Source of the DNA: Pseudomonas sp. MM223
GTDB lineage: Bacteria > Pseudomonadota > Gammaproteobacteria > Pseudomonadales > Pseudomonadaceae
NCBI GenBank assembly: GCA_947090765.1
Contig: OX352322.1
Location: forward strand, 949,501 to 1,013,500
Direction of reading: 5' to 3'
DNA: 64,000 nt
Shown here: one piece after another, positions 26,160-59,475 of the stretch
Layout of the letters: each line of letters opens with the position of its first letter
Numbering within the stretch: the first letter of the stretch is position 1
The notes under the pieces: model-generated
What the model was told of the DNA's origin: nothing
What the model saw: the letters and a program-made list of their open reading frames with translations, nothing else
Databases searched by the model: none
Translations under genes and position numbers: made by a program

Positions 26160-26838
26160 TTAGCGCTCGTCATGCCCTCGGTCAGTTGTCACTGCGTCTC
26201 TGAAGGCAATGTAGGCTAGCTTGTCCTTTAGGTCTTTCATTTTGGACTCCACAAGCTTCGACACATCTTCATCGCTTGCGGTGGGTGGCGTTTCGTCAGG
26301 CCACATTAGCTCCCAGCGAGCTAAAAGCGTTAGGTAGCGCTCGGTGTATTTCAGGGTTTCATCTAGTTGAGCCTCGAACAAGGCTGATTGCTGGTTGGCA
26401 ATCGCGAGCTTTCGCGCTACTGACTCTTTGAGCTCGCCTTTTATAGTCCCTTTCTGCGTTGAGAGCTTTCCCTTCCTCCTCAATTAGCGAAGTGATCGTG
26501 GCTGTTTCGTCCTTTTTTTGCTTCTGGGCGATGGCGTGTAGGCGGTCAATCGTTTCGTTCGTCAGCGTAAAGGTGATGGGCTGCCTGCCATTGCTGTCCG
26601 AGCGATAGCGGCGCTGACGGATTGCTCCCTGGAGCCTGATCACCAGGACTGGCATGTCTTGCTGAATCTGCCTGATAGCAGAGGCGACGTGCTCATAACT
26701 CGCAAACCTAGTAAACGCGTCACCCTTAAGTTTGCTCATGTAGTCGGCGCTGAGGCGATGCTTCAGGTACTCGGCGGCCCATTTCCATTCGTCATCCTGC
26801 TTTCGTAGCCACTTCAGCGGTTTCTCGTTTTCTGACAT
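26160..26838 (-). pseudogene. Ribbon-helix-helix-like protein, reading frame broken once
   Basis: Two overlapping frames read on from one another. The first (26,838 down to about 26,440) starts after GGAGG and contains ITFTLTNETIDRLHAIAQKQ...ITSLIEEEGKAL, a ribbon-helix-helix-like DNA-binding pattern. The second (about 26,440 down to 26,160) gives ESVARKLAIANQQSALFEAQLDETLKYTERYLTLL, a coiled-coil tail. Dropping one G in CGAGCTC near 26,437 joins them as KRQLKESVARKLA, about 225 aa in all. It diverges from the winged-helix gene at 27,044 across a phased repeat array it could bind. No named family was recognised. Confidence 0.6.
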
Positions 26839-26902
26839 CTCATCCTCCAGGCGGGCCGTTTTGGCTATGAGCCAAAGCCAAGCCTTCGGGAGAGATTTAT
26901 AC

Positions 26903-26992
26903 CGTTACTGTTTCGTTACGCAACCGTTATCAGCTTTGCCACTGATATGTTAGTAAAACGTTACGTGTTGTTATGTGAGTCGTTACTGTAAC
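26903..26992. promoter_or_regulatory. Helically phased CGTTAC repeat array
   Basis: The hexamer YGTTAY/YGTTAG starts at 26,903, 26,914, 26,925, 26,948, 26,959, 26,969 and 26,981, that is at steps of about 11 bp or two steps. The last copy forms the dyad GTTAC-T-GTAAC (26,982-26,992). It fills the divergent promoter region of the RHH-like gene and the gene at 27,044, which argues for a multi-site operator. Confidence 0.7.
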
Positions 26993-27043
26993 TAAGGTAT
27001 AGTAGATATAGGGTATATTTGCGAGTTAAAAATTGGAGGTTCT

Positions 27044-28405
27044 ATGCTTGCTAGGCTTCTTGATGCGAAGCTAAGGGCGGGTGATCCAGATGCTAAATTT
27101 TTGCTCATTGCATTCTGGAAGCACTATGGCTCGGTGACGCCTAAGCCTCGTTCGCAGAAGCAATTGGCTGAAGACCTGCGGCTTCCGGTGCAAGCAGTTT
27201 CAAAAGCGGTTGCCCAACTGGTTGATGTGGGGGTACTGCGAGTCGTTACTCAGCCTGAAGGGAAGGGGCGGCCAAGGTGTACCTACGAGATGAGCAAAGC
27301 TATCCAGTCGGCTCTGCGGGATGTCGAGGAAAGGACGCTGAACCACCCCGGTTTGGTCAAGCATGTCTTGGGTGGCGAGCGCATCAGGGCCATCTGGTCT
27401 GGCTGGAAGGACGATGCGCCGACTGCGAAGGAGCTCAACACACGCTCGCGAGACGAGAAGCGAGTTGCTCCAGTGCGGCAGGGGAAGCTCAGCTTGGCGA
27501 ATCGTTTGCTGCTCATGATCTTGCTAAGCCATGCAGATCCGTTTGGGGTTGCCAGGGGGCTGAGTAGCAAGGAGCTCTGCTTGCTGACGGGAATGGATGC
27601 GGCCTCTCTCAAGCAGCGCTTGCGCAGGCTTACGGAGCTGGGATTCATTCGTAGACACATACCTGGGTTGGCGAGTCCGATTTTCGCTGAGAAGCTCAGG
27701 AGCGTTTATTGGCTTAATCTGAACCACCTTCAGCTTTCACCTGCTGACGACGTTGTTTCCGTCGTGGTGCATAAGAAGGCCGCCGATCAAGACATCGACT
27801 ACAAGTTTTTGGCTGGCGTCAGACTTGATCGCAACTCCTTCCTAAGGCGAGGGGAATACTTGGCACCTCGCAGCGTGGTTCGTCTCTTCAGGCGAGCGCC
27901 AGATCATGCGTTTGATCAGCTTGAGCTTTTTATTTGTGACTGCGTATTGGGCTTTCTGTCGCGCCACTGGGTTCAGGCTGATTCCGCCGGATGGGGAAAG
28001 GTGCGCGGTGTGGACTCGACGGTGAAGGAGCAAGTGGCGGCATTCTTTCGACTGCCGATGCTTGATCCCAAGGACAAAGCGATTCTGGACCACGAGGAGA
28101 TTTTCGACTTCTTCCACCACCAAGTCCTTGAGCTGGCCAGAGAGGTGGTCCAACGTTTTTCGCAGGTATCCAGCATTGATCTGGCCAGGGTTAGCTACAT
28201 CTTGGTTCCGGCGCATGTGTCGACTGGCCACCGTTGCATCGCTCTGTTGACTGAAAGAGCCTCGGACGAGGGTCTGGCCAAGCATTGGATGGTCACCAAG
28301 GGGTGGGATGATCCTGTGGTGAAAAGCGTGTTAAGGGAGGTGGATATTCCGCTGGAGCTGCGCGAAAAGTCAGGGTTGCTCACGCCAGCACGAGCTGCTG
28401 GGTAA
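27044..28405 (+). CDS. Double helix-turn-helix protein, function unknown
   Basis: The 453-aa protein was not recognised as a named family. An N-terminal winged-helix is readable (about 35-85: KPRSQKQLAEDLRLPVQAVSKAVAQLVDVGVLRVV, followed by a wing GKGRPRCTYE). A second HTH follows at about 170-205 (LSSKELCLLTGMDAASLKQRLRRLTELGFIRR). The C-terminal half is mixed helix/strand with no motif I can name. It begins after TTGGAGG and is preceded by the phased repeats. It may be the island's main regulator or a replication-initiation type protein; I cannot separate the two. Confidence 0.75.
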   Translation: MLARLLDAKLRAGDPDAKFLLIAFWKHYGSVTPKPRSQKQLAEDLRLPVQAVSKAVAQLVDVGVLRVVTQPEGKGRPRCTYEMSKAIQSALRDVEERTLNHPGLVKHVLGGERIRAIWSGWKDDAPTAKELNTRSRDEKRVAPVRQGKLSLANRLLLMILLSHADPFGVARGLSSKELCLLTGMDAASLKQRLRRLTELGFIRRHIPGLASPIFAEKLRSVYWLNLNHLQLSPADDVVSVVVHKKAADQDIDYKFLAGVRLDRNSFLRRGEYLAPRSVVRLFRRAPDHAFDQLELFICDCVLGFLSRHWVQADSAGWGKVRGVDSTVKEQVAAFFRLPMLDPKDKAILDHEEIFDFFHHQVLELAREVVQRFSQVSSIDLARVSYILVPAHVSTGHRCIALLTERASDEGLAKHWMVTKGWDDPVVKSVLREVDIPLELREKSGLLTPARAAG

Positions 28406-28465
28406 CAGGCAGTTTTTTTATACGGCCCTCGCAGATCCTCTGGGACATACAGAGGAGCCCTGCTG

Positions 28466-28696
28466 ATGCGAATTTTCCGCTTACAAGACGTGATCACTGC
28501 TACTGGCCTGTCTAGGTCGACCCTGTACAAGTACATCTCGGAAGGCACCTTCCCGAAACCGGTATCGTTGGGCGACCGCTGCGTCGGCTGGGTCGATAGC
28601 GAGGTGCACGACTGGATCCTGGCCAGGATTGAGGAGCGTGACCAGGCTGAGGGTGCTGCTACGCGCCCGATTGGCCATCTGAGTATGGCCGGCTAG
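28466..28696 (+). CDS. alpA: AlpA-family regulator/excisionase-like protein
   Basis: The 76-aa protein is a typical AlpA/MerR-like small DNA-binding protein: MRIFRLQDVITATGLSRSTLYKYISEGTFPKPVSLGDRCVGWVDSEVHDWI, with a helix-turn-helix (DVITATGLSRSTLYKYI) and a wing. AlpA proteins turn on integrase or replication genes of satellite prophages and integrative elements. The start follows GGAG with a 7-base gap. It stands between the double HTH gene and the Gp2-like replication gene. Confidence 0.9.
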   Translation: MRIFRLQDVITATGLSRSTLYKYISEGTFPKPVSLGDRCVGWVDSEVHDWILARIEERDQAEGAATRPIGHLSMAG

Positions 28697-29105
28697 AACC
28701 GCTCCTGCGCCATGATCGGCTTCGGCTGGTCATGGCGCTTCTGCCGCCGTTCAGTCACTGGCTGTGCGGCCTCTTCGGCTTGATTTATTTCCGAAATCCG
28801 AACTCGGCAAAAATTGCCGCCATGGCGGGAAGATTGAGGTGGCTTTGCCCGAGCTGGTCGGAGAAGGAAATTGCGGTGCGGGTATTATGCTTTTACTAGC
28901 TATTACCACCCGAAGGGTTCACGCCTAACCGAGTAGCAACCTTCACTGACCTACACAGGGAGTCGGACACTGATCCACCACCTGAGAGGCCATCACTACA
29001 GCGTATCCAGAGAGACCAACCAACGGATCAGGCGAGGACAGGTAACGGTTAAAAAGTACACAGCAGGCACTGGTTATGAAACTCAACCAACGAGAGGTCA
29101 TAACC
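28697..29105. other. Intergenic region without gene
   Basis: I see no credible coding sequence. A GC palindrome GCCGCCATGGCGG lies near 28,816. An AT-rich patch GGTATTATGCTTTTACTAGCTATTACC near 28,880-28,905 could hold a promoter for the Gp2-like gene. Confidence 0.4.
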
Positions 29106-29831
29106 ATGCTCAACGATACCGAACCCACCCAGCGCTACCCACTCCGTCATCCTGATAATCCCAACCTCCATCTGCACTACGGGGATACCTTCGAGGGCTT
29201 TCCCATACAGATCGAAGTAGGCCCCTTTATTCGGGAATACCTGTCTGATCTCAAGCGCACCGTCGACCTGGCATTGGCTGAGTATCCGAGGGTCTTGGCC
29301 TACAGGGTGGATCTGCGTTTGCCTCAGGGTGTCGAGCTACCCGACTTCGCCTATACGAATCAGGTCATCAGCCGGTTCTTCGAATCGTTTACGAAGAAGA
29401 TCCAGTACCACCAGGAGCGGGTGGCTGAGCGTGGCTACTCGCGTGGGTGCAAAGTACGGTACGTCTGGTCGAGAGAGATCGGTCAGGGAGGTCGGCAGCA
29501 TTATCACCTGCTGATCCTGTTGAATCGCGATGCCTACTACACCATCGGGCGTCTGGGCTCAGAGAGGGTCAACATGATCAGCCGCATAGAAGAGTCATGG
29601 GCCAGTGCGCTGGGGTTGTTGATGTCTGAAGTCGATGGGCTGGTACATATCCCCGAAAATCCAACGTATCGGATAGATCGGCATCCCCGTATGCGGAAGG
29701 TTGCATGGTCAGAACACAAGGTTCTTGTTGATGAGCTACCGGATCTGTTCTACCGGGCCAGCTACCTGTGTAAGAAAGCGACCAAGTCCTACGGGGATCG
29801 TCAGCGGGGATTCGGCACTAGCCGAGGGTAG
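29106..29831 (+). CDS. Inovirus Gp2-like / YagK-YfjJ replication-type protein
   Basis: The 241-aa protein (start MLNDTEPTQ after GAGAGG) matches the inovirus Gp2 family: an early strand VLAYRVDLRLP, the HUH-like core RQHYHLLILLNRDAYY, and the C-terminal YRASYLCKKATKSYG with the candidate nicking tyrosine. Such proteins are thought to start rolling-circle replication of satellite elements. The downstream 42-nt hairpin could be its target. The ORF extends ten codons upstream to another ATG without ribosome site. Confidence 0.85.
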   Translation: MLNDTEPTQRYPLRHPDNPNLHLHYGDTFEGFPIQIEVGPFIREYLSDLKRTVDLALAEYPRVLAYRVDLRLPQGVELPDFAYTNQVISRFFESFTKKIQYHQERVAERGYSRGCKVRYVWSREIGQGGRQHYHLLILLNRDAYYTIGRLGSERVNMISRIEESWASALGLLMSEVDGLVHIPENPTYRIDRHPRMRKVAWSEHKVLVDELPDLFYRASYLCKKATKSYGDRQRGFGTSRG

Positions 29832-30607: not shown

Positions 30608-31984
30608 TTATCTGGGATGGGGCAATTCGATGTGAAAGCCCGTGAGGCTAGCCGCTGAGGTGCACCAGATGCGGCCTTTGTGAGCCTCAATGATGGATCG
30701 GGTGATTGCAAGCCCGAGCCCGGCGTTGCTCGGGCTGCCCTCCCGCCGAGCGGGGTCAACCCGGTAAAAACGGTCGAAGAGCTTCTCTAGATGCTCTGGC
30801 TCGATTGTGTCCCCTGGGTTCTCGATACTGAAGGTAGTGGAGTCCTCTGTCTCGCGGATCAGAACCGAAATTGTCTGTCCCGCCGGCGTGTAGCGCAGCG
30901 CATTGGACAGCAAGTTGGATAGCGCGCGATCAAGCATCAGCCGATCTCCCAGCACTTGGCCTTTGCCTGTGAGCGATAGCTCAATGCCGCGCTCTTCGGC
31001 CAGAAGGTGGTAGTAGTCAAACAGCTTGAAGACTACGTCAGCCAGTTCGATCCTGGCCTGCTCGGGGATGATCAGGCCATTATCAGCCTTGGCCAAGAAC
31101 AGCATGTCATCAATCATCCGAGACATGCGCTTCAAGTCCTCCAGGTTGGAGTACAGATTCTCCTCATAGGCATTGATATCGCGTTTTTTACTCAGCACGA
31201 CCTCGGTGTGGGTCATCAGATTGCTGACTGGAGTTCGTAGCTCGTGGGCAATGTCGGCCGAAAAATTGGAGAGCCTAACGAAGGCATCCTCTAGCCGAGC
31301 CAACATCGCATTGAAGGAGAGAACCAGTTGCTGAAGTTCCCGCGGCACTGGTTCGAGAGGGATTCGCTCCTGTAACGAGCGAGCGGACATCCCGGAGGCC
31401 ACATGAGTGACTTGCCGCAGAGGCCTAAGGCCGCTGCGAGCAACCACCCAGCCGAGTGCGGCACTGAACAGGGCGCTGATGACCAATCCAATCCAAAACC
31501 ATCGTTGCAGCGTGTCGAAAAAGTGTGTGTGATTGGTGACGTCAAGAATCAGCAACGCAGTAAGCGGCTCAGCCTGATCGGCTACCGAGATTTGCTCCGT
31601 CATGCCACGGTACATGTGTTGGCCGTTCTGCCACTCCCACATGCTCTGCTCATTTGCACGTCTGAAACGCTCAGGTACTTCGACTGCTCTGGGGTCGGAA
31701 AACAGTACAGAACCGTCACTGGCCAGGATAGTGGCGGCCAGATCCTGATGGGCTCCCAGCAAAGCTCGCAACTGCGGTAATTCTTCCGAAAGGCTCGCTT
31801 CACCGCGAGCATTGTTGAGGATATGTTTGGCGGATTCGAGTTTCTCCACCAGGGCCTGCCGATCCAGCATCTTGAAGTGGTGCTGGCTGAGCATATTGAA
31901 ACTCAGCCCTGCTACCGTCAGGACTGCAATTACCGCGGACATGAACATCAGGCTCATGCGTGCGGTCAGCGAAAGGTGCTTCAT
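30608..31984 (-). CDS. copS: Heavy-metal sensor histidine kinase (CopS/CusS type)
   Basis: The 458-aa protein has an N-terminal membrane helix (SLMFMSAVIAVLTVAGLSF), a periplasmic sensor domain (about 35-160), a second helix (FWIGLVISALFSAALGWVVA), a HAMP linker, the H-box in FSADIAHELRTPVSNLMTHTEVVLSK, the N-box LSNLLSNALRYTPAG and G-boxes ending in GLGLAITRSIIEAHKG. It senses periplasmic copper and phosphorylates CopR. The start at 31,984 has GGAG at a good distance; a GTG two codons earlier overlaps the copR stop. Confidence 0.93.
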   Translation of the reverse strand: MKHLSLTARMSLMFMSAVIAVLTVAGLSFNMLSQHHFKMLDRQALVEKLESAKHILNNARGEASLSEELPQLRALLGAHQDLAATILASDGSVLFSDPRAVEVPERFRRANEQSMWEWQNGQHMYRGMTEQISVADQAEPLTALLILDVTNHTHFFDTLQRWFWIGLVISALFSAALGWVVARSGLRPLRQVTHVASGMSARSLQERIPLEPVPRELQQLVLSFNAMLARLEDAFVRLSNFSADIAHELRTPVSNLMTHTEVVLSKKRDINAYEENLYSNLEDLKRMSRMIDDMLFLAKADNGLIIPEQARIELADVVFKLFDYYHLLAEERGIELSLTGKGQVLGDRLMLDRALSNLLSNALRYTPAGQTISVLIRETEDSTTFSIENPGDTIEPEHLEKLFDRFYRVDPARREGSPSNAGLGLAITRSIIEAHKGRIWCTSAASLTGFHIELPHPR

Positions 31985-31986
31985 AT

Positions 31987-32663
31987 TCACTCCGGAGCAT
32001 CCATCATGTATCCCATGCCGCGGGCGGTATGAATCAGCTTGAGATCGAAATCGTCATCGATTTTTGCGCGTAGCCGGCGTACCGCAACCTCAATGACATT
32101 GGTGTCGCTGTCGAAATTCATGTCCCAAACCTGAGAGGCAATCAGCGACTTCGGGAGCACCTCGCCGCGCCGGCGCAGTAGCAGTTCCAGCAGTGAAAAC
32201 TCCTTCGCGGTCAGGTCAATTCTTTTCCCGCCACGGATCGCACGCCGCTTCATCAGATCGACTTCCAGATCGGCAATTTTCATGGTGGTCTGCGTCGGCG
32301 AACCATTACCTCTGCGCAACAGCGTTCTGACCCTGGCCAGAAGCTCTGAGAAAGCAAATGGCTTGATCAGGTAGTCGTCCGCACCCAGCCCAACCCTTTT
32401 ACGCGGTCTTCCACACCATCGCGTGCCGTCAAGAACAGTACGGGGACGTCTTTTCCTGCTGCGCGCAACATGCGCAGCACTTCCCAACCGTCCAGCCCAG
32501 GCATCATTACATCCAGAATTAGCAGGTCATAGGCTTCGCTAAGTGCATGCTGAAGGGCATCTGTACCGGTCATAACCCGGTCGACATTGAACCCAGCCTC
32601 GGTGAGACCTTGCTGGAGGTACGTACCGGTTTTGGGTTCGTCTTCAGCTACCAGTAGTTTCAT
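31987..32663 (-). pseudogene. copR: Response regulator CopR/CusR with one-base frame break
   Basis: The receiver half starts at 32,663 ([19 protein letters not shown]) with the phosphate acceptor in [10 protein letters not shown]. The effector half ends at 31,987 with the OmpR-type winged helix ([39 protein letters not shown]). They lie in different frames. The conserved GLELGADDYL is recovered if one A is restored near 32,388-32,390 (minus strand GGGTTGG-GCTGGG, expected GAGCTG). With it the protein would be a normal 225 aa. As written the regulator lacks its DNA-binding domain. Sequencing error is a real alternative. Confidence 0.85.
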
Positions 32664-32742: not shown

Positions 32743-32870
32743 TCTGACTTCAGGCTCACTGACAGGGTGGCTTGTCTAGGGTGCAAGCATGAGTACTAGG
32801 TTGTGCTCTCGGCCCTCGACAGACCAAAAGCAGAGGTGCCGGCCATAGTTTGCACTGATGGAGACTGCCC

Positions 32871-33954: not shown

Positions 33955-33960
33955 TCCGGC

Positions 33961-35142: not shown

Positions 35143-35242
35143 TCCTTTTGTAGCGCTTACGGGCTTGACCTTGCCCAGTGAGGCTTCGCGATCAACACAC
35201 CATGCATTCACAATGTCACTGCAAGGTCCGGCATGTCTCTGC

Positions 35243-35677
35243 TCAGTCCTTACGGCCTGAGCTAGCCCTATACAGCTGTTGTTTGCTCTCCTCGCTGATC
35301 CCCGTCAGGATGCCGCAGGCATTGATCTCCCGACCCTCGTTGCAACTCGCCCTCAGTGAAACGAGTTGTTGCTCAAGCGCTTGCAGAGCAGTTATCTGCG
35401 ACCGCACATGAGAGATGTGGTCATCGAGCATGGCGTTGACGGCGGTACAGGGCTGGCGAGGGTCGTCCTGATAGCTCTGTAGCTCGCGAATCTCTGTCAG
35501 TGACAGGTCCAGAATTCGGCAGCGGCGGATAAAGGCAAGCCACTCGCCATGCTTCTCGGTATAGACACGGTAACCATTCTCCTGCCGTTCTGGCGGCGGC
35601 AACAGGCCCTGCTGCTCATAGAAGCGGATCGTCTGCGTGTCGATACCCGCTATCTGGGCTAACTGACCAATGCGCAT
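35243..35677 (-). CDS. cadR: Cd(II)/Pb(II)-responsive MerR-family regulator
   Basis: The 144-aa protein has the MerR winged helix (MRIGQLAQIAGIDTQTIRFYEQQGLLPPPERQENGYRVY), a dimerisation helix, and the three cysteines of the CadR/PbrR group: C77 (RQPC), C112 (RASC) and C121 (INAC). It twists a long-spacer promoter when cadmium or lead binds. Its target is the divergent promoter at 35,710. The family call is secure; Cd versus Pb preference is not readable. Confidence 0.93.
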   Translation of the reverse strand: MRIGQLAQIAGIDTQTIRFYEQQGLLPPPERQENGYRVYTEKHGEWLAFIRRCRILDLSLTEIRELQSYQDDPRQPCTAVNAMLDDHISHVRSQITALQALEQQLVSLRASCNEGREINACGILTGISEESKQQLYRASSGRKD

Positions 35678-35709
35678 CAGGCTTACTCCTCAACGGATCA
35701 TCTGTCCCA

Positions 35710-35740
35710 TTGACCTTATAGTAGCTATATAGTTTTTAAT
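35710..35740 (+). promoter_or_regulatory. MerR-type promoter with overlong spacer
   Basis: The -35 TTGACC (35,710-35,715) and -10 TTTAAT (35,735-35,740) are 19 bp apart, longer than the normal 17. The dyad TATAGTAGCTATA lies in the spacer. This is the standard MerR-family operator, reading toward the CDF gene. Confidence 0.8.
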
Positions 35741-35775
35741 ACTAGCAATCTATGTTGGTTAACTGGAGCCGTATC

Positions 35776-36672
35776 GTGAGTAAAGCCTGTGGTGGCCCAT
35801 GTAGCTGCGATGCAACGCCTGCAGCGGATACCGATATGCCGGTCTCCTCCGAAGCGTCAGGGGAATGGGTCAGCGTGTATGCTGTGCCGAAGATGGATTG
35901 TCCCTCAGAAGAACGGATGATCCGCTTGGCGCTGAACGGCTTTGATGAGATTCGAACGCTGTCCTTCGACTTGTCGAACCGCCGATTGGAGGTCGTGCAT
36001 GACGGCGAGGCTGAGCCCATTACCGCGAAACTGGCGACCTTGGGGCTAGGCGCCTCTCTTCAGGAAACCGTCATTGCCGACCCAGAGACGATCAAGGCCG
36101 CTGAGAGCTCGGCAGTCTCTGCTACGCAGGAGTCAGGCACTCTGCGCGTGTTGCTCGGTATCAATGCGATCATGTTCGTGGTGGAAATGACTGCTGGCCT
36201 GATCGCCCAGTCTACCGGCCTGATCGCTGATTCCCTGGATATGTTTGCCGATGCAGCCGTCTATGGCCTGGCTCTCTATGCCGTAGGGCGCAGTGCGAAA
36301 ATGCAGGTACGTGCCGCGCATCTGGCAGGGGTACTGCAACTGATTTTGGCTATCGGCGTACTCGTCGAGGTGGTGCGACGCTTTGTTTTCGGTAGTGAGC
36401 CTGAATCGCTGATGATGATGGCGATCGCCTTCGTCGCGTTGATCGCCAATACCGGTTGCCTGCTGTTGATATCCAAGCACCGCGAAGGCGGCGCGCATAT
36501 GAAGGCAAGCTGGATATTCTCGGCCAATGATGTGGTGATCAACATGGGCGTCATCGCCGCCGGTGCCTTGGTCGCCTGGACGGGGTCCAGCTACCCTGAC
36601 CTGATTATCGGTACCATCGTGGGCCTGATCGTCCTCAACGGCGCTCGGCGCATCCTGGCGCTCAAGGGGTGA
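35776..36672 (+). CDS. Cation diffusion facilitator with N-terminal metal-binding segment
   Basis: The 298-aa protein (GTG start, SKACGGPCSCD, with GGAG ahead) has a cysteine-rich leader, an HMA-like segment VYAVPKMDCPSEERMIRLAL, and then a five- or six-helix CDF core with the metal site in LIADSLDMFADAAVYGLAL and WIFSANDVVINMG. It should export Cd2+, Zn2+ or Pb2+ from the cytoplasm by proton exchange. It is the first gene after the CadR promoter. An upstream ATG (35,752) overlaps the promoter tail and lacks a ribosome site. Confidence 0.88.
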   Translation: MSKACGGPCSCDATPAADTDMPVSSEASGEWVSVYAVPKMDCPSEERMIRLALNGFDEIRTLSFDLSNRRLEVVHDGEAEPITAKLATLGLGASLQETVIADPETIKAAESSAVSATQESGTLRVLLGINAIMFVVEMTAGLIAQSTGLIADSLDMFADAAVYGLALYAVGRSAKMQVRAAHLAGVLQLILAIGVLVEVVRRFVFGSEPESLMMMAIAFVALIANTGCLLLISKHREGGAHMKASWIFSANDVVINMGVIAAGALVAWTGSSYPDLIIGTIVGLIVLNGARRILALKG

Positions 36673-36814
36673 GGCTGCACGGTACGCAGCTATCGATGCC
36701 TGGGACACTTGATCGAAGTGGCTGTACAAGCGCGCTAGGCCTGAACGACAGCATATAGCGCGAAGGCTCGGAGCCAGCAAGGTAGCGTATCTAGGAATCA
36801 ACCAAGGAAGGAAG

Positions 36815-37576
36815 ATGATGGATAGTATCTGGCTGGTACTCGGCCTGGCGCTGTTGCCCGCCTTAGGCAATTTTAGTGGTGGGCTCGCTGCGGAGGCCTC
36901 CCGAACTACCGGGCGCCGTCTCAATTACGCCCTTCACGGCGCTGCCGGCCTCGTCATTGCGGTGGTGGCGGTTGAAATCATGCCGCGCGTGCTAGAGAAC
37001 CTCTCAGCCTGGGTAATCGCCCTCGCTTTCGCGCTGGGCGGCATTGCTTACGTAGGTATCGAGAAGCTCGTTGAGAGTCTCCAGAAGCGACAAGGCCAGC
37101 AGGGAGAAGGCGGTCAGACGAGTGTCTGGATGATCTATATCGCCGTATCCATCGACCTGTTCAGCGATGGCCTCCTGATCGGGGCGGGGTCGGCGGTCTC
37201 ACCGTCGGTCGCGATAATCCTGGCGGCGGGTCAGGTTCTCGCCGATGTTCCTGAGGGCTTTGCGACGATCGCCACCATGAAAGATAAAGGAATCCCTCGT
37301 AGCAAGCGGATACTGCTCTCTGCTTCCTTCGCGATTCCTGTGCTCTCGGCAGCCGTCTTTGCTTACTTCGTACTCAGGAACCAGCCGGAGGCATTTAAGC
37401 TAGCGGCACTGACGTTCACGGCAGGCCTTCTCACGGTCGCTGCCATCGAAGATATGGTCTCCGAGGCTCACGAGAGCGGTGACGATACGCACATCTCACC
37501 GCTGGCTTTCATAGGCGGCTTCGTCCTGTTCGTTCTGGTATCAGCGGGCTTGGAAGGGGTGGTATCGCAAAGCTAA
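36815..37576 (+). CDS. ZIP-family metal transporter
   Basis: The 253-aa protein has eight hydrophobic segments and the ZIP signature in helices 4 and 5: SIDLFSDGLLIGAGSAVSPSVAIILAAGQVLADVPEGFATIATM, with conserved D/E ligands. ZIP proteins move divalent metals toward the cytoplasm. In a resistance cluster it may export in reverse or supply zinc. Two adjacent ATGs (36,815 and 36,818) follow AAGGAAGG. It is 142 bp after the CDF gene on the same strand. Confidence 0.85.
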   Translation: MMDSIWLVLGLALLPALGNFSGGLAAEASRTTGRRLNYALHGAAGLVIAVVAVEIMPRVLENLSAWVIALAFALGGIAYVGIEKLVESLQKRQGQQGEGGQTSVWMIYIAVSIDLFSDGLLIGAGSAVSPSVAIILAAGQVLADVPEGFATIATMKDKGIPRSKRILLSASFAIPVLSAAVFAYFVLRNQPEAFKLAALTFTAGLLTVAAIEDMVSEAHESGDDTHISPLAFIGGFVLFVLVSAGLEGVVSQS

Positions 37577-39989: not shown

Positions 39990-40823
39990 CACGACTGCTG
40001 CCAAGGGCTCTGCTGCATCCTAACCAATCTGGAAGAGCGCACCCTGCTGGACCTGCTACCCGGTCGTCAGCAAGAGAGGGTGACAAGACGCCTCATGAGC
40101 ATGGCCAACCGCCACCAGGTCGAGATCGTCAGCATGGACATGTGGAAGCCCTACCGCCGCGCCTTCCAGACGGTGCTGCCACAGGCCCGTATCGTGGTCG
40201 ATAAGTTCCACGTCGTGCGCATGGCCAACGAGGCCTTAGAGAAGATCCGCAAAGGCCTAAGGAAGGAGTTGAAGCCCAATCAGCGCCGGACCCTCAAAGG
40301 TGACCGGAAAATCCTGCTGAAGCGCGCTCACGACGTTTCAGACCGCGAACGGCTCATCATGGAGACCTGGACAGGAGCATTCCCCCCTGCTCTTGGCGGC
40401 TTACGAGCACAAGGAGCGCTTCTACCATATCTGGGACTGTACCAATCGGCGTGGTGCCGAACAGGCTCTCGCCACCTGGATTGACAACATCCCTCAGGGG
40501 CAGAAGGAGGTTTGGAAGGATCTCGTCAGCGCCGTCAGTGGCTGGCGTGAAGAGATGCTGACCTACTTTGAGACCGACATCCCGATCACCAACGCTTTCA
40601 CGTAGTCGATAAACCGCCTAGCCAAGGACAAAAACCGTGATGGCCGGGGCTATTCGTTCGAGGTAATGCGAGCCCGGATGCTCTATACCACCAAGCACAA
40701 GAAGAAGGCGCCACAAGTCAAGGAATCCCCGTTTCTGGGCAGAGCCACCATGACCTACAACATGGGACTCCCCGAGCCTGAGAAGAACTTCGGTGTCGAT
40801 CTATCAACCTTCTGGAAGGACTA
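39990..40823 (+). pseudogene. ISL3-family transposase remnant
   Basis: The catalytic part is visible: VEIVSMDMWKPYRRAFQTVLPQARIVVDKFHVVRMAN, then ETWTGAFP, LLAAYEHKERFYHIWD, and the C-terminal GYSFEVMRARMLYT...TFWKD. The N-terminal zinc and HTH region is missing. An extra C in the C6 run at 40,382-40,387 shifts the frame, and a TAG at about 40,604 interrupts FT*SINRLAKDKNRD. An IS5-family copy sits exactly at the end of its stop codon. The 100 bp before it (39,886-39,989) hold no recognisable gene. Confidence 0.8.
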
Positions 40824-40824
40824 A

Positions 40825-44440: not shown

Positions 44441-44755
44441 ATGAGCACTTTTATGAAGCGAAATGCCCTGGCTGGCAGCGCAGTCATGTTCAGCCTATTG
44501 GCTGCCCTGCACGCACCGGTTTCGTTGGCAGGTGAGGGGCACAGTGAGCACGAACAACATGCTGCCGAGTCGGCTGTGCCCAAGACCGCCAGTGGCAATC
44601 ACGCAGATCAGTCGAAGGATAAGGCGGCTGGCCAGCATATGGATCATGGCGCCATGGATCACGGAGACATGAAGCATGACGGCATGAATCACGAAAACAT
44701 GATGGATAAGCATGGCGGCACCGAAGCCGAAGCAGGTTCGAACCATGACCACTAG
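44441..44755 (+). CDS. Small periplasmic Met/His-rich copper-binding protein
   Basis: The 104-aa protein has a signal peptide (cleavage near LAG, residue 31), then low-complexity sequence full of copper-site words: HSEHEQHAAE, QHMDHGAMDHGDMKHDGMNHENMMDKHGG, ending in NHDH. No fold is expected. It probably buffers copper for CopA or CopB. The start follows AAAGGAG, 12 bp after copA, and it overlaps copB by 11 bp, so the three are translated as a coupled set. Confidence 0.82.
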   Translation: MSTFMKRNALAGSAVMFSLLAALHAPVSLAGEGHSEHEQHAAESAVPKTASGNHADQSKDKAAGQHMDHGAMDHGDMKHDGMNHENMMDKHGGTEAEAGSNHDH

Positions 44756-45945
44756 GTTTTCACGTCCATCTCTCTTGGCGCTGGCTGTGTCGCTGAGTGC
44801 GTTCAGCGGCGGCGTTACTTTGGCTGCGGAAGAAATGGATCATTCGGCAATGGGGCACGGCACCATGTCGATGGACCATAGCCAGATGAGCCACGGCGCT
44901 ACCAAAGCGCCGATGGAGGGCATGGATCACAGCAAGATGGACCATGGTGCCATGCAGGGTGCTTCGGGCAGCATGGATCATAGCCAGATGGGCCACAGCC
45001 AGAGCCAGAGCCAAGAAAAGGCTCCAGCCATGGACCACAGCAAGATGGATCACGGCGCCATGCAGGGTGCTTCGGGCAGCATGGATCATAGCCAGATGGG
45101 CCACGGCCAGAGCCAAGAGAAGGCCCAGGCTATGGATCACAGCAAGATGGGGCATGGCGCCATGCAAGGACAGATGGAGGGCATGGATCATTCAAAGATG
45201 AACCATGGCTCCGCTGAAGCCCCGAGAACCACCAGCCGTACGCCGATTCCCGTTCTGACGGATGCTGATCGCCAAGCGGCTTTCCCGCCATTACCTGGCC
45301 ACAAGGTTCACGACAGCGCCATCAACAGTTTTTTCCTGCTCGATCGAGCTCGAATACCAGGACGCAGATGAGGGCAGCACCCTGGCCTGGGATGCGTCGG
45401 GCTGGGTAGGCGGTGATATCAACCGGGTCTGGTTCCGCTCCGAAGGCGAGCGTACCAACGGCGTGACCGAGGATGCTGAATTACAGCTGCTGTACGGCCG
45501 CTCGATCGGCCCTTGGTGGGATGTCGTCGCGGGCGTTCGCCAGGACTTCAAACCGGAGTCGCCGCAGACTTGGGCCGCCTTCGGTATCCAGGGCATGGCG
45601 CTTTACGCCTTTGAGGCCGAAGCCACGGCCTTCGTCGGCGAGAATGGCCAAACTGCTGCCCGACTGGAGGGCGAGTACGACATTCTGCTGACCAACCGGC
45701 TGATTCTCCAGCCAACTGCCGAAATGAACTTCTACGGCAAGAACGATCCTGAGCGAGGTGTGGGGTCTGGGTTGGCAAATACCGAGCTCGGCTTGCGTCT
45801 GCGTTACGAGATTGTCAGGCAGTTTGCCCCCTATATCGGGGTTTCCTGGAGCCGCTCCTATGGCAACACGGCAGACATGGTGCGCGACGAGGGCGGTGAT
45901 GTAGACGAGGCGCGTTTTGTCGCCGGTATCCGGATGTGGTTTTGA
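44745..45945 (+). pseudogene. copB: Outer-membrane copper protein CopB with one-base frame break
   Basis: The first frame gives a signal peptide and a long MDHSxMxHG repeat domain up to [18 protein letters not shown]. The second resumes with [29 protein letters not shown] and ends with the beta-barrel closing strand FVAGIRMWF. Removing one G at about 45,346 (CTCGATC-G-AGCTCGAA) restores [13 protein letters not shown], the conserved CopB (PcoB) sequence, about 399 aa in all. As written the outer-membrane domain would not be made. A sequencing error at this site cannot be excluded. Confidence 0.85.
44949..45104 (+). repeat. 48-bp exact direct repeat within copB
   Basis: Positions 44,949-44,996 and 45,057-45,104 are identical 48-mers, 108 bp apart, coding for AMQGASGSMDHSQMGH. 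They lie in the methionine-rich domain and are long enough to support slippage or recombination in units of 36 codons. Confidence 0.9.
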
Positions 45946-47296: not shown

Positions 47297-48488
47297 GGAA
47301 GGTCTGAAGTAGCCCTGTATTTCCGGTCGACTTCAGCCCTCGCTGCTTTTGAAAGCGGGCCGTCGATCAAATTCGACCAGGTAACCCGCTCAGTTCTCCG
47401 TTTTTGGCCGCCGCGAGCACCTCGCAGCAGCCATTTTCCGCATTACAGGTGCACCTTTCCTGCGGTAGTCAGCAAATGTCGGCGCGCCATCCATAGGTTC
47501 GACAGCGCGAACAGCGTCACCAGCTGAGCGGTGTTCTTGGCCAGGCCACGGAAGCGCACCTTCACGTAACCGAACTGGCGCTTGATCACTCGAAACGGGT
47601 GCTCGACCTTCGCTCGCACTTGTGCCTTGGCCTTCTCGATCTTGCGCTTGGCTTTGTACAGGGCGCTGCGTTTATCGAGCTTCTTGTAGGTGCTGCGGCG
47701 TGCTGCGACCTGCCAGATCACTTCGCGGCCAGCATGTTCGGGGCGCTTTTCGACGCCGGTGTAGCCGGCATCGGCGCAGACGACGTTCTCGTCACCGTGC
47801 AGCAGTTTGTCGACCTGGGTGATATCCGCCACGTTGGCTGCCGTGCCTACCACGCTGTGTACCAGCCCCGACTCATCATCCACGCCGATGTGCGCCTTCA
47901 TGCCAAAGTAATACTGGTTCCCTTTCTTGCTCTGGTGCATTTCCGGGTCGCGCTTGCCGTCCTGGTTCTTGGTCGAGCTGGGCGCGTGGATCAGTGTGGC
48001 ATCGACGATAGTGCCCTGGCGCAGCGACAGGCCGCGATCCCCCAGGTAGCCATTGATTACGCCGAGGATGCCGGCTGCCAGCTCATGTTTCTCCAGCAAG
48101 CGACGGAACTTGAGGATGGTGGTTTCGTCGGGAATACGCTCGAGGCTCAGCCCGGCGAACTGACGCAGGATGGTCGTCTCGTAGAGCGCTTCTTCCATGG
48201 CCGGGTCGCTGTAGCCGAACCAGTTCTGCATCAGATGGATACGTAACATGGCCATCAGCGGATAGGCTGGACGACCACCTTCACCCTTTGGGTAGTGTGG
48301 CTCGATCAGGGCAATCAATCCCTTCCACGGCACCACCTGATCCATCTCGATCAGGAACAATTCCTTACGGGTCTGCTTGCGCTTGCCGGCGTACTCGGCG
48401 TCGGCGAAGGTCATCTGCTTCATGGAAAAACTCGGCTGGCGGGATCGGCGTATTTCACCAGATTCAGGAAGTCTTTTTCAGACCTTCC
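47297..48488 (-). mobile_element. IS5-family insertion sequence, copy 2 (1192 bp)
   Basis: It has the same length and ends as copy 1, the same orientation, and target duplication CTAA at 47,293-47,296 and 48,489-48,492. The two copies bracket the ptrA-like/copA/copB/cytochrome/DUF411 block, giving a possible composite transposon of about 7.7 kb. Each copy having its own CTAA pair argues that they inserted separately. Confidence 0.95.
47443..48423 (-). CDS. IS5-family transposase, copy 2
   Basis: The 326-aa DDE transposase is identical in translation to the one at 40,971, with the same catalytic D, D and E residues and no interruption. Confidence 0.95.
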   Translation of the reverse strand: MKQMTFADAEYAGKRKQTRKELFLIEMDQVVPWKGLIALIEPHYPKGEGGRPAYPLMAMLRIHLMQNWFGYSDPAMEEALYETTILRQFAGLSLERIPDETTILKFRRLLEKHELAAGILGVINGYLGDRGLSLRQGTIVDATLIHAPSSTKNQDGKRDPEMHQSKKGNQYYFGMKAHIGVDDESGLVHSVVGTAANVADITQVDKLLHGDENVVCADAGYTGVEKRPEHAGREVIWQVAARRSTYKKLDKRSALYKAKRKIEKAKAQVRAKVEHPFRVIKRQFGYVKVRFRGLAKNTAQLVTLFALSNLWMARRHLLTTAGKVHL

Positions 48489-55117: not shown

Positions 55118-55460
55118 GGGACGAACCTCCTTGGTGCTGATGTCATTGCGGTAATGTGTGGTCGAGATTTTTTTGAATCGAATGGCTGCTTTTCAGCAGC
55201 GCTAACTGAGTGCGAACTGGCTGGAGTCGGCCACTAGCGGCCTGTCGTAAGCGGCATAATCTGTAGACGAGCCACCGATACTGCGCACAAGCGAAACGCT
55301 CCAGCTGCTCGATTGAGGCCATCTGGGTAAGGCGTTTACGTCGGGACTAGTCATGCTTCCGCAGTCAGCGGCGAGGTAGTCCCTGAGCTCACTGGAGCCC
55401 AGGGTTTCGAAGCAGGCCGTCTTCAACGTCTTCCTCGATGAATTGACTCTCAAGCCAGCC
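55118..55460. other. Intergenic region without gene
   Basis: I see no coding sequence that looks natural. A T-rich run (GATTTTTTTGAATCG near 55,170) may hold the promoter of the element block. This gap separates the element block from the detoxification cluster. Confidence 0.4.
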
Positions 55461-55763
55461 TTAGCCGCGCTGAGATAAGATCGTCTCGAGCAAACTAGGA
55501 AATCGATTGTTCAAATCATCCCTGCGCAACGAGTTCATATGGGTCGTGCCGATGGTTTGGGTTTGGACCAACCCGGCATCTCGCAGCACCCTGAAGTGAT
55601 GGGACATGGTGGACTTTGGTCGGCCACCGTCCAATTCGCCACAGCTGGCTTCGCCCAGTTCGGCAAGGCGTCGGACGATCTCCAGGCGCACAGGATCGCT
55701 CAAGGCGTATAGCAGACGCTCGAGGACGAATTCAGTGACGGGAGGGTGTTTGTAGGGGCGCAT
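55461..55763 (-). CDS. ArsR-type winged-helix regulator
   Basis: The 100-aa protein (start MRPYKHPPVTE) has the ArsR fold: LERLLYALSDPVRLEIVRRLAELGEASCGEL, then the recognition part PKSTMSHHFRVLRDAGLVQTQTIGTTHMNSLRRDDL. No metal-site CVC is present; two histidines and one cysteine remain, so it probably senses an organic or redox signal. It is divergent from the ene-reductase gene with an operator-like dyad between. It likely represses the cluster. Confidence 0.88.
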   Translation of the reverse strand: MRPYKHPPVTEFVLERLLYALSDPVRLEIVRRLAELGEASCGELDGGRPKSTMSHHFRVLRDAGLVQTQTIGTTHMNSLRRDDLNNRFPSLLETILSQRG

Positions 55764-55795
55764 GAACGAAGCATACACGGGTTTGCTCTATCTCC

Positions 55796-55817
55796 ATAGT
55801 TCGAATACTATCGAATT
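55796..55817. promoter_or_regulatory. Operator-like repeat between arsR-type gene and xenA
   Basis: ATAGT-TCGAAT-ACTAT is a dyad, and TTCGAAT/ATCGAATT is repeated across it. It lies 30-50 bp from both starts, where an ArsR-type repressor would bind. Confidence 0.6.
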
Positions 55818-55846
55818 GACGTAATAGACAACCCTCGGAGAAACCA

Positions 55847-56938
55847 ATGTCTGCGCTGTTCCAACCCTTCACGCTTAAAGACGTCACGCTTCGCAACCGT
55901 ATTGCGATTCCCCCTATGTGCATGTACTCGTCAAACGATGGCCTGATCAACGAGTGGCACAGTGTTCACTACGCCTCCCTTGCGCGTGGCGGGGCGGGGT
56001 TGGTGATTGTCGAAGCAACCGCTGTAGCGCCAGAAGGGCGGATCACTCCTGGCTGTGCGGGTATTTGGAACGATGAGCTGGCCCAGGCCTTCGTACCGGT
56101 GGTGCAGTCGATCAAGGCAGCCGGCTCGGTCCCCGGCCTGCAGATCGCCCACGCCGGTCGCAAGGCAAGCGCAAACCGTCCATGGGAAGGCGATGACCAC
56201 ATCGCTGAAGATGACGCCCGTGGCTGGCAGACCATCGCTCCATCGGCCATAGCTTTTGGCGGTCACCTGGCCAAGCAGCCGCAAGCCATGACGCTGGAAG
56301 ACATTGCCCGTGTGCGTGAGGATTTCGTCGCAGCCGCTCGCCGTGCGCGTGACGCTGGCTTCGAGTGGCTGGAGCTGCATTTCGCCCATGGTTATCTGGC
56401 CCAGTCGTTCCTTTCCGAACACTCCAACCATCGCGATGACGCCTACGGCGGCAGTTTCGACAACCGTAGCCGCTTCCTGCTTGAAACGCTGGCGGCTGTT
56501 CGTGAGGTTTGGCCGGAGCACCTGCCGCTAACCGCTCGTCTAGGGGTTATCGAATACGACGGCCGGGACGAACAGACGCTGACCGAGGCTATCGAACTGA
56601 CACGTCGCTTCAAAGATGGTGGCCTGGATCTGCTGAGCGTCAGCATTGGTTTCACCATCGCTGAAACCAACATTCCCTGGGCGCCTGGCTTCATGGGCGA
56701 AGTTGCCCAGCGCGTGAAGCGTGAGGCGGGGATACCAGTGGCTTCGGCATGGGGCTTCGGCGCGCCAAGCGTTGCCGAAGAAGCGGTCAAGAGCGGTCAG
56801 CTGGACTTGGCGATGATTGGGCGAGCACATCTGGCCAATCCAAATTGGTCCTATCTTGCCGCCCAAGAGCTGGGCGTAGAGCGTGCGTCCTGGACCTTGC
56901 CGGCTCCCTATGCCCACTGGCTTGAACGCTACAAGTGA
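55847..56938 (+). CDS. xenA: XenA-like ene-reductase (old yellow enzyme)
   Basis: The 363-aa flavoprotein matches P. putida XenA closely over its length: LKDVTLRNRIAIPPMC with C25, which tunes the flavin; GLQIAHAGRKASANRPWEGDDHIA; the substrate histidines in LELHFAHGYLAQSFLSEHSN; and the ending ASWTLPAPYAHWLERYK. It reduces activated C=C bonds and nitro compounds with NAD(P)H. It is first of four genes on this strand behind the ArsR-type regulator. Confidence 0.93.
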   Translation: MSALFQPFTLKDVTLRNRIAIPPMCMYSSNDGLINEWHSVHYASLARGGAGLVIVEATAVAPEGRITPGCAGIWNDELAQAFVPVVQSIKAAGSVPGLQIAHAGRKASANRPWEGDDHIAEDDARGWQTIAPSAIAFGGHLAKQPQAMTLEDIARVREDFVAAARRARDAGFEWLELHFAHGYLAQSFLSEHSNHRDDAYGGSFDNRSRFLLETLAAVREVWPEHLPLTARLGVIEYDGRDEQTLTEAIELTRRFKDGGLDLLSVSIGFTIAETNIPWAPGFMGEVAQRVKREAGIPVASAWGFGAPSVAEEAVKSGQLDLAMIGRAHLANPNWSYLAAQELGVERASWTLPAPYAHWLERYK

Positions 56939-57064
56939 TCCGTCGGGGCGAAGACGGCCGTCATGGCCTAATCGCCCGCTGCCTCAGCGCCGATGTGCGC
57001 TGGTGGCTACCTGGCTGGGCCGCTCATGGCTCGGCCCTTCCGATAGATAGCTGAGGATTACGCT

Positions 57065-58054
57065 ATGTCTCGCGTCATACGCTTTCATCGCACCGGTGGA
57101 CCGGAGGTTCTCCAGATCGACGAGATCGACGTGCCGGCTCCCGGCGCGAACGAGGTTCAAATCAACGTCAGGGCGCTCGGCATCAACCGGGCTGAAGTGA
57201 TGTACCGCACAGGCCAGTACGTCATCGAACCGACGTTTCCCGCCATGCTGGGCTATGAAGCGGCTGGGACCGTATCTGCAGTGGGTCCCGGTGTGGTCGG
57301 CTTCGCTGTTGGCGATGCGGTCAGCGTAGTGCCCGCGTTCTCCTTTGACGAATACGGCTTGTACGGTGAATTGGTCAACGCGCCGGCTCACGCGGTGGTC
57401 AAACACCCGGAAGCGCTTTCTTTCACGGAAGCAGCGGCGACCTGGATGAAGTTTGTCACTGCCTATGGCGCACTGATCGAGCTTGGTGGGCTGCAGGCCG
57501 GCGAGACGGTGCTAATCCGTGCGGCGTCCAGCAGCGTGGGGCTTGCCGCTATCCAGATTGCGAACATGGTGGGCGCCGTTCCTGTCGCGCTGACCCGCAC
57601 CAGCGACAAGCGCGAGGCCTTACTTCAGGCCGGGGCGGCGGCAGTCATTGCGACGCAGGAGCAGGACATGGTGGCCGAGGTCATGACGATGACTCATGGC
57701 AAAGGCGCTCGCATGGCCTTCGATCCCGTTGGCGGGCCCGAAGTGGCCTTGGTGCTCAAGGCACTGGCGAACCACGGCATCTTCTTCCAGTACGGCGCTT
57801 TGGACACTCGGGATATCCCTGTGTCGGTCATGGACCTGCTCGGCAAGCATCTGACGCTGCGTGGTTATCAGCTGTTCGAGATCACCCAGGATCGAGAAAA
57901 ACTCGAACGGGCCAAGCACTTCATCAACGAAGGGCTCGCCTCTGGGCAGCTGCAGCCGGTAATCGACCGTACATTCAGCCTCGACGAGATGGCCGAGGCT
58001 CACCGGTACATGGAATCGAATGCCCAGGTGGGCAAGATTGTTGTAACGCTTTAA
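57065..58054 (+). CDS. Quinone oxidoreductase/medium-chain dehydrogenase
   Basis: The 329-aa protein has the MDR fold: GroES-like N-terminus with GYEAAGTVSAVGPGVVGFAVGD, then a Rossmann part with VLIRAASSSVGLAAIQIANMVGA and DPVGGPEV. The zinc ligands of alcohol dehydrogenases are lacking, as in NADPH:quinone reductases. It follows xenA by 126 bp. It probably reduces quinones or enones in the same response. Confidence 0.9.
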   Translation: MSRVIRFHRTGGPEVLQIDEIDVPAPGANEVQINVRALGINRAEVMYRTGQYVIEPTFPAMLGYEAAGTVSAVGPGVVGFAVGDAVSVVPAFSFDEYGLYGELVNAPAHAVVKHPEALSFTEAAATWMKFVTAYGALIELGGLQAGETVLIRAASSSVGLAAIQIANMVGAVPVALTRTSDKREALLQAGAAAVIATQEQDMVAEVMTMTHGKGARMAFDPVGGPEVALVLKALANHGIFFQYGALDTRDIPVSVMDLLGKHLTLRGYQLFEITQDREKLERAKHFINEGLASGQLQPVIDRTFSLDEMAEAHRYMESNAQVGKIVVTL

Positions 58055-58152
58055 ACCACGTGCAGGTCTTCGCGGCATGGCCGGTAGGGTCACTGTCGAT
58101 AAGCCCATGCCAGCTCGATGCGTCTCTCACACATGCACAGACAGGAGGTTCG

Positions 58153-58446
58153 ATGACCACCCCACTCACACTGGTTGCCACATTGGTCGCCAAGGCCGGC
58201 TCCGAAGATGAGCTCCAGCAGACGCTGCAGGATCTGCAAGGCGCAAGTCGCGCCGAAGCAGACTGCATCCAATACGACTTTCATAAAGATGCAGAACAGC
58301 CTCGCACCTTCCATATGGTTGAGCAGTGGCGAGACGAAGCGGCGCTGACTGCGCACGAGGCCACCCCGCATTTCCAGGCAGCGCTGCCCGTCATCGAACG
58401 CGCCGCCGAAAAATTCTCCGTCATGAAAATGTACCGCGTCTCCTGA
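58153..58446 (+). CDS. Antibiotic-biosynthesis-monooxygenase (ABM) domain protein
   Basis: The 97-aa protein is a one-domain dimeric ferredoxin-like ABM protein: LTLVATLVAKAGSEDELQQTLQDL, then CIQYDFHKDAEQPRTFHMVEQWRDEAALTAHEATPHFQ. Members such as YgiN oxidise quinols without cofactor. The start at 58,153 follows AGGAGG; the longer frame from 58,060 is rejected. Together with its quinone-reductase neighbours it suggests a quinone cycle. The next gene starts 11 bp on. Confidence 0.88.
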   Translation: MTTPLTLVATLVAKAGSEDELQQTLQDLQGASRAEADCIQYDFHKDAEQPRTFHMVEQWRDEAALTAHEATPHFQAALPVIERAAEKFSVMKMYRVS

Positions 58447-58456
58447 GGAGCTCCGA

Positions 58457-59475
58457 ATGAAAGCCATTGCACACTTCAAATGTCTGCCTGTTGAGAACCC
58501 TGACGCCCTCGTGGAGATCGATCTACCCGAGCCAGTGCCGGGGCCGCGCGACCTGCTGGTAGAAGTCAAGGCCGTATCGGTCAACCCGGTCGATACCAAA
58601 GTCCGCCAGGGCTACGTGCCGCATACAGACGAAACACAGCCGCGCATCCTCGGTTGGGACGCTGCCGGCGTGGTCAAGTCGGTCGGTTCCGACGTAACGC
58701 TGTTCAAGCCCGGTGACAAGGTGTGGTACGCCGGGTCGCTGATCCGCCCGGGCAGCAACAGTGAGTTGCAGCTGGTAGACGAGCGCATTGTCGGATCGAT
58801 GCCACAGTCGCTGGAGTTCGCCCAGGCCGCGGCGCTTCCCCTGACGTCTCTGACCGCTTGGGAATTGCTATTTGATCGCCTCGGCGTAGCGCGCGACACC
58901 ACCGACCGTGGCGAAACGCTGCTGATCATTGGCGCTGCAGGCGGGGTGGGTTCAATCATGACTCAGCTGGCGCGTCAGTTGACCGGCCTGACCGTCATTG
59001 GTACGGCTTCGCGCCCTGAAACCCAGGCCTGGGTCACCGAACTCGGCGCCCATTACGTGATCGATCACACCAAGCCACTGAGCGAAGAGCTCAAGCGCAT
59101 CGGCCTTCCGCAGGTCAGCTACGTCGCAAGCCTGACGCAGACCGATCGGCATTACGAGCAGATCATCGAGTCACTGAAGCCACAGGGCAGGTTGGGCCTG
59201 ATCGATGACCCGGCCACGCTGGACGTCGTACCGCTCAAACGCAAGAGCCTGTCGCTGCACTGGGAGCGATGTACACGCGCTCGCTGTACGAGACCGAGGA
59301 CATGCAGGAGCAGCACAACATCCTCAATGAAGTGGCCCGCCAGATCGATGCGGGTGTGTTGCGCACCACCGTTGGCGAAAACTACGGGCGTATCAGCGCC
59401 GAAAACCTACGTCGCGCCCATGCCTTGCTGGAGAGCAGCAAGGCAAAGGGCAAGATCGTTCTGGAGGGCTTCTGA
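58457..59475 (+). pseudogene. Zinc-type quinone oxidoreductase with one-base frame break
   Basis: The main frame reads as a zinc-type alcohol dehydrogenase-like/QOR2 protein: AVSVNPVDTKVRQGY, LGWDAAGVVKSVGSDVTLFKPGDKVWYAG, LLIIGAAGGVGSIMTQLARQ, ending LSLHWE. The true C-terminus continues in another frame from MYTRSLYETEDMQEQHNILNEVARQIDAG to GKIVLEGF. Restoring one T in GAGC-GATG near 59,269 gives HWELMYTRS, the family sequence, and a 339-aa protein. As written, translation would run on into an unrelated tail. Either recent mutation or sequence error. Confidence 0.85.

What the first reader, a model, noticed from the sequence alone, without database searches (positions are those of the whole stretch)
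26160..59475. Four frame breaks all repairable at one hexamer, CAGCTC/GAGCTG
Four island genes are broken by a single base, and each repaired sequence contains the same hexamer. In copR (near 32,389) GAGCTG lost its A. In the quinone reductase (near 59,269) GAGCTG lost its T. In copB (near 45,346) CAGCTC gained a G. In the RHH-like gene (near 26,437) CAGCTC gained a G, though that site is less firmly placed. For copR, copB and the reductase, family conservation fixes the repair (GLELGADDYL, LLDQLEYQDADEG, HWELMYTRS). Four lesions in one hexamer is unlikely by chance. Either a modified-base motif causes systematic read error, or a mutational process is tied to the site. Intact GAGCTG copies elsewhere (22,150; 16,988) show it is not absolute.
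Basis: partly seen in the sequence, partly recalled or inferred. Interest (0 to 1): 0.75.

Follow-up and report, generated by a model that had tools for sequence, protein, structure and literature searches.

The report
Motif-tied assembly errors, not mutations
The broken genes in this bacterial genome sit at one six-letter DNA word that is damaged across the assembly, most likely because a chemical mark on that word misled the sequencing machine, so most of these genes are probably intact in the living cell.

Summary
All four genes are broken in the window and open in relatives. For copR, copB and the reductase, relatives carry GAGCTG/CAGCTC at the break. For the RHH-like gene, four of four relatives lack the extra base and two of four carry the hexamer there. 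In window segments at least 97.5% identical to relatives (23,485 bp), all six single-base gaps fall at five of 19 hexamers, two of those sites being new. Across 658 kb of this chromosome against relative G230, 44 of 165 clean short indels lie on the hexamer, 1.75 expected (p 3e-45), first of 2,080 hexamers; counted from this genome's own hexamers there is 1, 1.5 expected. The lesions largely ignore reading frames: 36 of 44 are coding, against 535 of 591 intact hexamers and 46 of 121 other indels. polA, fusA, gshA and surA are each split into two high-identity halves. Best explanation: systematic consensus error at a modified asymmetric site, about 450 sites if scaled to the genome. That phenomenon is known; I found no report of this motif. 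Platform, modification and responsible methyltransferase could not be established.

The parts
26160..26838 (-). RHH-like gene in two overlapping frames (159 and 107 aa); break at 26434-26437
   Evidence: open 232-aa frame in two relatives; no Pfam family for either piece
30608..31990 (-). copS-like sensor kinase, frame open; hexamer of 12 of 15 relatives replaced at 30798-30803 by a same-length change (two cancelling single-base gaps)
31987..32663 (-). copR response regulator, split into receiver and DNA-binding halves; break at hexamer 32386-32391
32751..32756 (.). new hexamer site in the copR-ptrA intergenic region, one-base difference from 15 of 15 relative loci
44712..45945 (+). copB, split frame; break at hexamer 45345-45350
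58457..59475 (+). zinc-binding alcohol dehydrogenase family (quinone reductase-like) gene; break at hexamer 59264-59269
11527..11528 (.). intergenic one-base gap against G230 and G336; G230 has the hexamer here, G336 does not (weaker case)
40387..40392 (.). hexamer of a 99.95% identical relative carries a substitution in the window; possible mismatch-type lesion

Best explanation
The frame breaks are systematic errors of the assembled consensus at the asymmetric hexamer GAGCTG/CAGCTC. Shown here: lesions concentrate on exactly this hexamer, only when it is read in relatives, they fall in genes nearly in proportion to where the hexamers lie, and no relative compared in the window shares them. 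Inferred: the hexamer is a recognition site of a DNA methyltransferase of this strain; the modified base distorts a long-read (probably nanopore) signal, and in about 8% of sites the consensus settled on a length one base too short or too long. The copper, reductase and RHH genes are then probably intact in the cell. The modifying enzyme is not identified. One candidate is a 1,304-aa protein with two fused N6/N4 methyltransferase domains (C1:5937892-5941806), an architecture that would suit an asymmetric site needing one activity per strand; an Eco57I-type protein (C1:350893-354792) and three loci with cytosine methylase matches are also present.
For: 44 of 165 clean 1-2 nt indels at the hexamer, 1.75 expected, p 3e-45, rank 1 of 2,080; coding only 36 of 82, 0.87 expected; none of the 18 one-letter variants exceeds 5 events; counted on own hexamers 1, 1.5 expected. 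Unfiltered: 55 of 930 hexamers, 8.1 expected; own hexamers 5 of 801, 6.9 expected. Near-identical window segments: 6 of 6 single-base gaps at 5 of 19 hexamers; the one other gap is 18 nt. Coding share 36 of 44 against 46 of 121 for other indels, Fisher p 5e-7. 27 of 35 hit genes align to G230 in two frames, among them polA, fusA, gshA, surA, speA, pqqB. Two outcomes account for 29 of 46 lesions: loss of the A (18) and an extra C (11). Fused methyltransferase found in 0 of 397 other genus genomes at E 1e-100. Precedent: Dcm motifs gave about 70% of nanopore consensus errors (PMC6591954, passages); Listeria genomes with errors at GCAGC or GCTGG (PMC10687267, abstract, part of Results, Discussion).
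Against: Sequencing platform, reads and modification data were not available. Published modification errors in PMC10687267 were mainly mismatches; here they are indels, and substitutions at the hexamer are barely raised (279 of 930, 30.0%, against 27.7% overall). Most conserved hexamers are called normally (593 against 54 lesions). The coding share of lesions is somewhat below that of intact hexamers (82% against 90.5%, p 0.07). fusA has a second intact homologue, so its break is not proof of lethality. Three of 31 lesions were scored as broken in G230 rather than here by a crude frame test.
Confidence: 0.85

Rival explanations
1. Real mutations: a site-specific process (for example self-cleavage or nicking by the strain's own restriction enzyme followed by error-prone repair) makes short indels at the hexamer in the living cell.
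For: Lesions are specific to an enzyme-like asymmetric site, and the genome encodes restriction-modification-like loci, one with a PD-(D/E)XK nuclease and an MTaX1 protein beside the fused methyltransferase.
Against: About 67 clean lesions per aligned Mb fall in genes nearly in proportion to the hexamers, splitting polA, gshA, surA and fusA, with both halves otherwise conserved. Selection should have removed such mutations, as it did with other coding indels (46 of 121).
Confidence: 0.05
2. Sequence-only error: the basecaller or polisher misreads GAGCTG whether or not it is modified.
For: Long-read consensus has sequence-dependent errors; homopolymer events in genes also lean to this genome (11 broken here, 5 in G230).
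Against: A six-base requirement with CAGCTG (0, 1.1 expected) and all but one of the one-letter variants near background (GAACTG 5, 1.3 expected) is unlike an ordinary sequence-context error. The relatives do not show the lesion, but their platforms are unknown, so this rival is only weakened.
Confidence: 0.08
3. Ordinary gene decay of a redundant island, the hexamer being coincidence.
For: The island is mosaic, with segments 98-99.95% identical to different plasmids and genomes.
Against: The same hexamer is hit across the chromosome outside the island; island relatives are open at these points; 6 of 6 single-base gaps in near-identical segments are at hexamers.
Confidence: 0.02

Closest known systems
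Dcm-motif (CCWGG) consensus errors in nanopore assemblies (PMC6591954, passages seen)
   Same: Consensus errors concentrate in a fixed methylation motif, in many sites but not all.
   Different: Different motif; here asymmetric; no raw reads available; the passages seen do not say whether Dcm errors were indels.
Modification-mediated errors at GCAGC or GCTGG in Listeria (PMC10687267; abstract, Results part 1 of 2 and Discussion seen)
   Same: Lineage-specific motif whose errors betray an untrained modification; related genomes show the error.
   Different: Those errors were mainly mismatches; these are one-base indels, so they break frames. Motif differs. No demodified control here.
Long-read homopolymer indel errors
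   Same: Short indels that break genes; also present in this genome.
   Different: 52 of 165 clean indels are at homopolymers of four or more, 69 at neither; the 44 hexamer events are a separate class.

Membership tests
Motif-tied systematic long-read consensus error | Errors concentrate in one short fixed motif of the true sequence | tested here: met
   44 of 165 events, 1.75 expected; rank 1 of 2,080
Motif-tied systematic long-read consensus error | Motif lost in this assembly, not gained: no excess at this assembly's own copies | tested here: met
   1 event, 1.5 expected; 5 of 801, 6.9 expected
Motif-tied systematic long-read consensus error | Errors blind to gene function and reading frame | tested here: met
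   36 of 44 coding against 535 of 591 intact hexamers (p 0.07) and 46 of 121 other indels (p 5e-7)
Motif-tied systematic long-read consensus error | Assembly made from native-DNA long reads without full short-read correction | not testable with these tools
Motif-tied systematic long-read consensus error | Error disappears in independent or demodified reads | not testable with these tools
   no reads
Modification at GAGCTG/CAGCTC | The hexamer carries a modified base in this strain | not testable with these tools
   no signal or kinetic data
Modification at GAGCTG/CAGCTC | A methyltransferase present here and absent from relatives without the lesions | tested here: inconclusive
   fused N6/N4 protein here, not in G230, G336, G278 nor in 397 other genus genomes; but Eco57I and PF00145 candidates also present, specificity unknown
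Listeria-type modification error (PMC10687267) | Mainly mismatches | tested here: not met
   substitutions 30.0% against 27.7% background; indels 55 against 8.1 expected

The most novel reading that the evidence does not exclude
The indels are real: the strain's own modification-restriction machinery damages its asymmetric site GAGCTG/CAGCTC and error-prone repair leaves one-base scars, in a clone so young that selection has not yet removed hundreds of broken genes.
Probability: 0.04. Interest if true: 0.85.

Novelty: new member of a known kind. Interest (0 to 1): 0.42.

Why it matters
If right, this genome carries roughly 450 false indels (44 clean events per 658 kb, scaled to 6.73 Mb), most inside genes. 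That would distort pseudogene counts, pangenome and typing work, and would make working copper-tolerance genes look dead. It also shows that an unmeasured modification motif can be read from a finished assembly with no raw data, by asking which hexamer of a relative is hit by indels in one direction only; the same test could screen other complete genomes for such errors and propose motifs for orphan methyltransferases.

Tried and rejected
Rejected: (1) Chance: 4 of 4 sites, and then the genome-wide test. (2) Island decay: lesions lie across the chromosome outside the island. (3) Restriction-site avoidance: 63 copies in the window, 59 expected. (4) A second motif, CACAAG, seemed enriched when counting own hexamers (32, 2.8 expected); the 12 alignments printed of it were intergenic repeat variants with several gaps, and only 1 clean event remained in the first 487 kb. 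The same repeats contain GGGAGC-type strings and inflate the unfiltered hexamer count, so the filtered set is the one to trust. (5) A longer motif: sites preceded by G were hit more (16 of 115 intact-or-lesioned, against 12 of 242 after C), a context effect rather than a requirement. (6) Paired lesions 22-27 bp apart (ispH; one intergenic pair): 3 double-lesioned among 54 close pairs without substitutions, not clearly above chance.

Led nowhere: the search for related loci with the RHH piece confirmed no relative; plasmid search with it found none; my first gene caller picked wrong frames, so 6 of 10 proteins had no family, and it was replaced. Motif searches in papers: GAGCTG; 44 papers, 20 listed; CAGCTC; 517 papers with at least 3 of 4 terms, 20 listed, 2 of them holding the string; in the two papers whose passages I saw the string was in a primer. 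No other list entries were opened for it.

Dropped before counts: alignments under 85% identity or 500 bp; indels over 2 nt, within 30 columns of an alignment end, with another gap within 20 columns or fewer than 34 of 40 flanking matches; four short matches.

Full report
What was checked. The window is C1:949501-1013500 of an unnamed 6.73-Mb genome of two contigs, probably Pseudomonas (inferred from named plasmid hits).

The four sites. In copR 15 of 15 aligned loci (12 distinct sources) differ by one base and 11 carry the hexamer within 12 columns; in copB 4 of 4 differ and 4 carry it; in the reductase 2 of 2 differ and 2 carry it. In the RHH-like gene 4 of 4 relatives lack one base; in 2 of them the hexamer spans or touches the gap; the gene is a 232-aa open frame in G406 and G009. 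Pfam supports the identities of copR's two halves, copB and the reductase; the RHH pieces match no Pfam family.

More sites in the window. Taking only segments of at least 97.5% identity and 500 bp (23,485 bp counted once), there are six single-base gaps and one 18-nt gap. All six single-base gaps lie at five hexamers of the relatives, out of 19: 13 hexamers are intact, 5 have gaps, 1 has a substitution. The two new sites are in the copR-ptrA intergenic region (32751-32756) and in copS (30798-30803), where two gaps cancel.

Genome-wide test. I fetched 944 kb of this chromosome and 1.2 Mb of G230 and aligned 658,483 columns at 93.6% identity. Of 930 hexamers read in G230, 55 contain or adjoin a gap here (8.1 expected, p 6e-28, first of 2,080 hexamers). 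Of 801 hexamers read here, 5 do against G230 (6.9 expected). Because intergenic repeats inflate raw counts, I repeated this with isolated 1-2 nt indels in clean flanks: 44 of 165 lie on the hexamer, 1.75 expected, p 3e-45; coding only 36 of 82, 0.87 expected; counted on own hexamers 1, 1.5 expected. The nearest related palindrome, CAGCTG, has 0 (1.1 expected); of 18 one-letter variants the highest is GAACTG with 5 (1.3 expected), which would fit a hexamer that diverged in G230 (inference). So all six letters matter, as for an enzyme recognition site.

Error or mutation. If the indels were real, those in genes should be depleted. Other short indels are: 46 of 121 are coding. Hexamer lesions are not: 36 of 44 coding (Fisher p 5e-7), close to the 535 of 591 of intact hexamers (p 0.07). 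Of 35 hit genes 27 align to G230 in two frames. Examples: DNA polymerase I (residues 1-572 at 97.6%, 574-935 at 99.2%), elongation factor G (1-471 at 100%, 472-714 at 99.2%), glutamate-cysteine ligase (1-126 at 100%, 128-530 at 98.8%), SurA (1-195 at 97.9%, 163-441 at 88.2%), SpeA, PqqB, a BioH-like protein (below its curated cut-off). IspH has two opposite lesions 22 bp apart that restore the frame. EF-G has a second intact 705-aa homologue, so its loss need not be lethal, and I do not claim that any single break proves error. The argument rests on the whole set.

Lesion form. Pooled over 46 lesions, 18 lost the A of GAGCTG and 11 gained a C; the remainder are scattered. About 8% of hexamers that are either conserved or lesioned carry an indel (54 of 647). 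In the island the share is 5 of 18 (p 0.016), but the window was chosen because of such breaks. Substitutions at the hexamer are barely raised (30.0% against 27.7%), and at this divergence a small excess could not be seen.

Cause. The strongest reading is a modified base that the basecaller had not learned. Passages of PMC6591954 report that about 70% of nanopore consensus errors of one Klebsiella genome lay in Dcm motifs; PMC10687267 (abstract, Results part 1, Discussion) reports Listeria lineages with errors at GCAGC or GCTGG. Those Listeria errors were mainly mismatches, a difference from this case. The platform of the present genome is unknown to me.

Candidate enzymes. A 1,304-aa protein at C1:5937892-5941806 has an HTH and two N6_N4_Mtase regions, next to a DUF2357/PD-(D/E)XK protein and an MTaX1 protein. 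It had no match at E 1e-100 in 397 other genus genomes. A 1,299-aa Eco57I-type protein at C1:350893-354792 lies beside a 1,109-aa SNF2/PLD helicase; Eco57I matches were absent from G230 and G336 but G278 has two. PF00145 matches lie at three loci here, one each in G336 and G278, none in G230. Two fused domains would suit an asymmetric site, but no specificity was shown.

Verdict. It is a known kind of artefact with a motif that my searches did not find in print.

Noticed in passing
G000:C1:5937892-5945249: Fused double N6/N4 methyltransferase (1,304 aa, PADLOC model PDLC03312, 2,864 bits) with a divergent MTaX1 protein and a DUF2357/PD-(D/E)XK nuclease; no match in 397 other genus genomes at E 1e-100.
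   Followed up: partly
G000:C1:350893-358111: Eco57I-type methyltransferase (1,299 aa) beside a SNF2/PLD helicase (1,109 aa), resembling Type IIG and DISARM parts in PADLOC.
   Followed up: partly
35176-40826 and 55228-59484: Mosaic island: the cadR/lnt/lspA segment is 99.95% identical to a Stutzerimonas megaplasmid, the oxidoreductase cluster 99.8% to a P. aeruginosa plasmid.
   Followed up: partly
40971-41951 and 47443-48423: Two 326-aa minus-strand frames of equal length on either side of the pco/cop genes, probably copies of one IS5-type element (identity not checked).
   Followed up: no
G000:C1:309501-1053500: Homopolymer indels in genes also lean to this genome: 11 scored broken here, 5 in G230, as expected of an incompletely polished long-read assembly.
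   Followed up: partly
G000, intergenic: REP-like repeats differ in sequence class between this genome (GGCACAAGGC type) and G230 (GGGCTTGCCC or GCCAGCTCCC type).
   Followed up: no
26001-29831: Element at the island edge with an AlpA regulator and a YagK/YfjJ C-terminal (REP-like) protein beside the RHH-like gene; about 90% identical to G009 contig 4.
   Followed up: no
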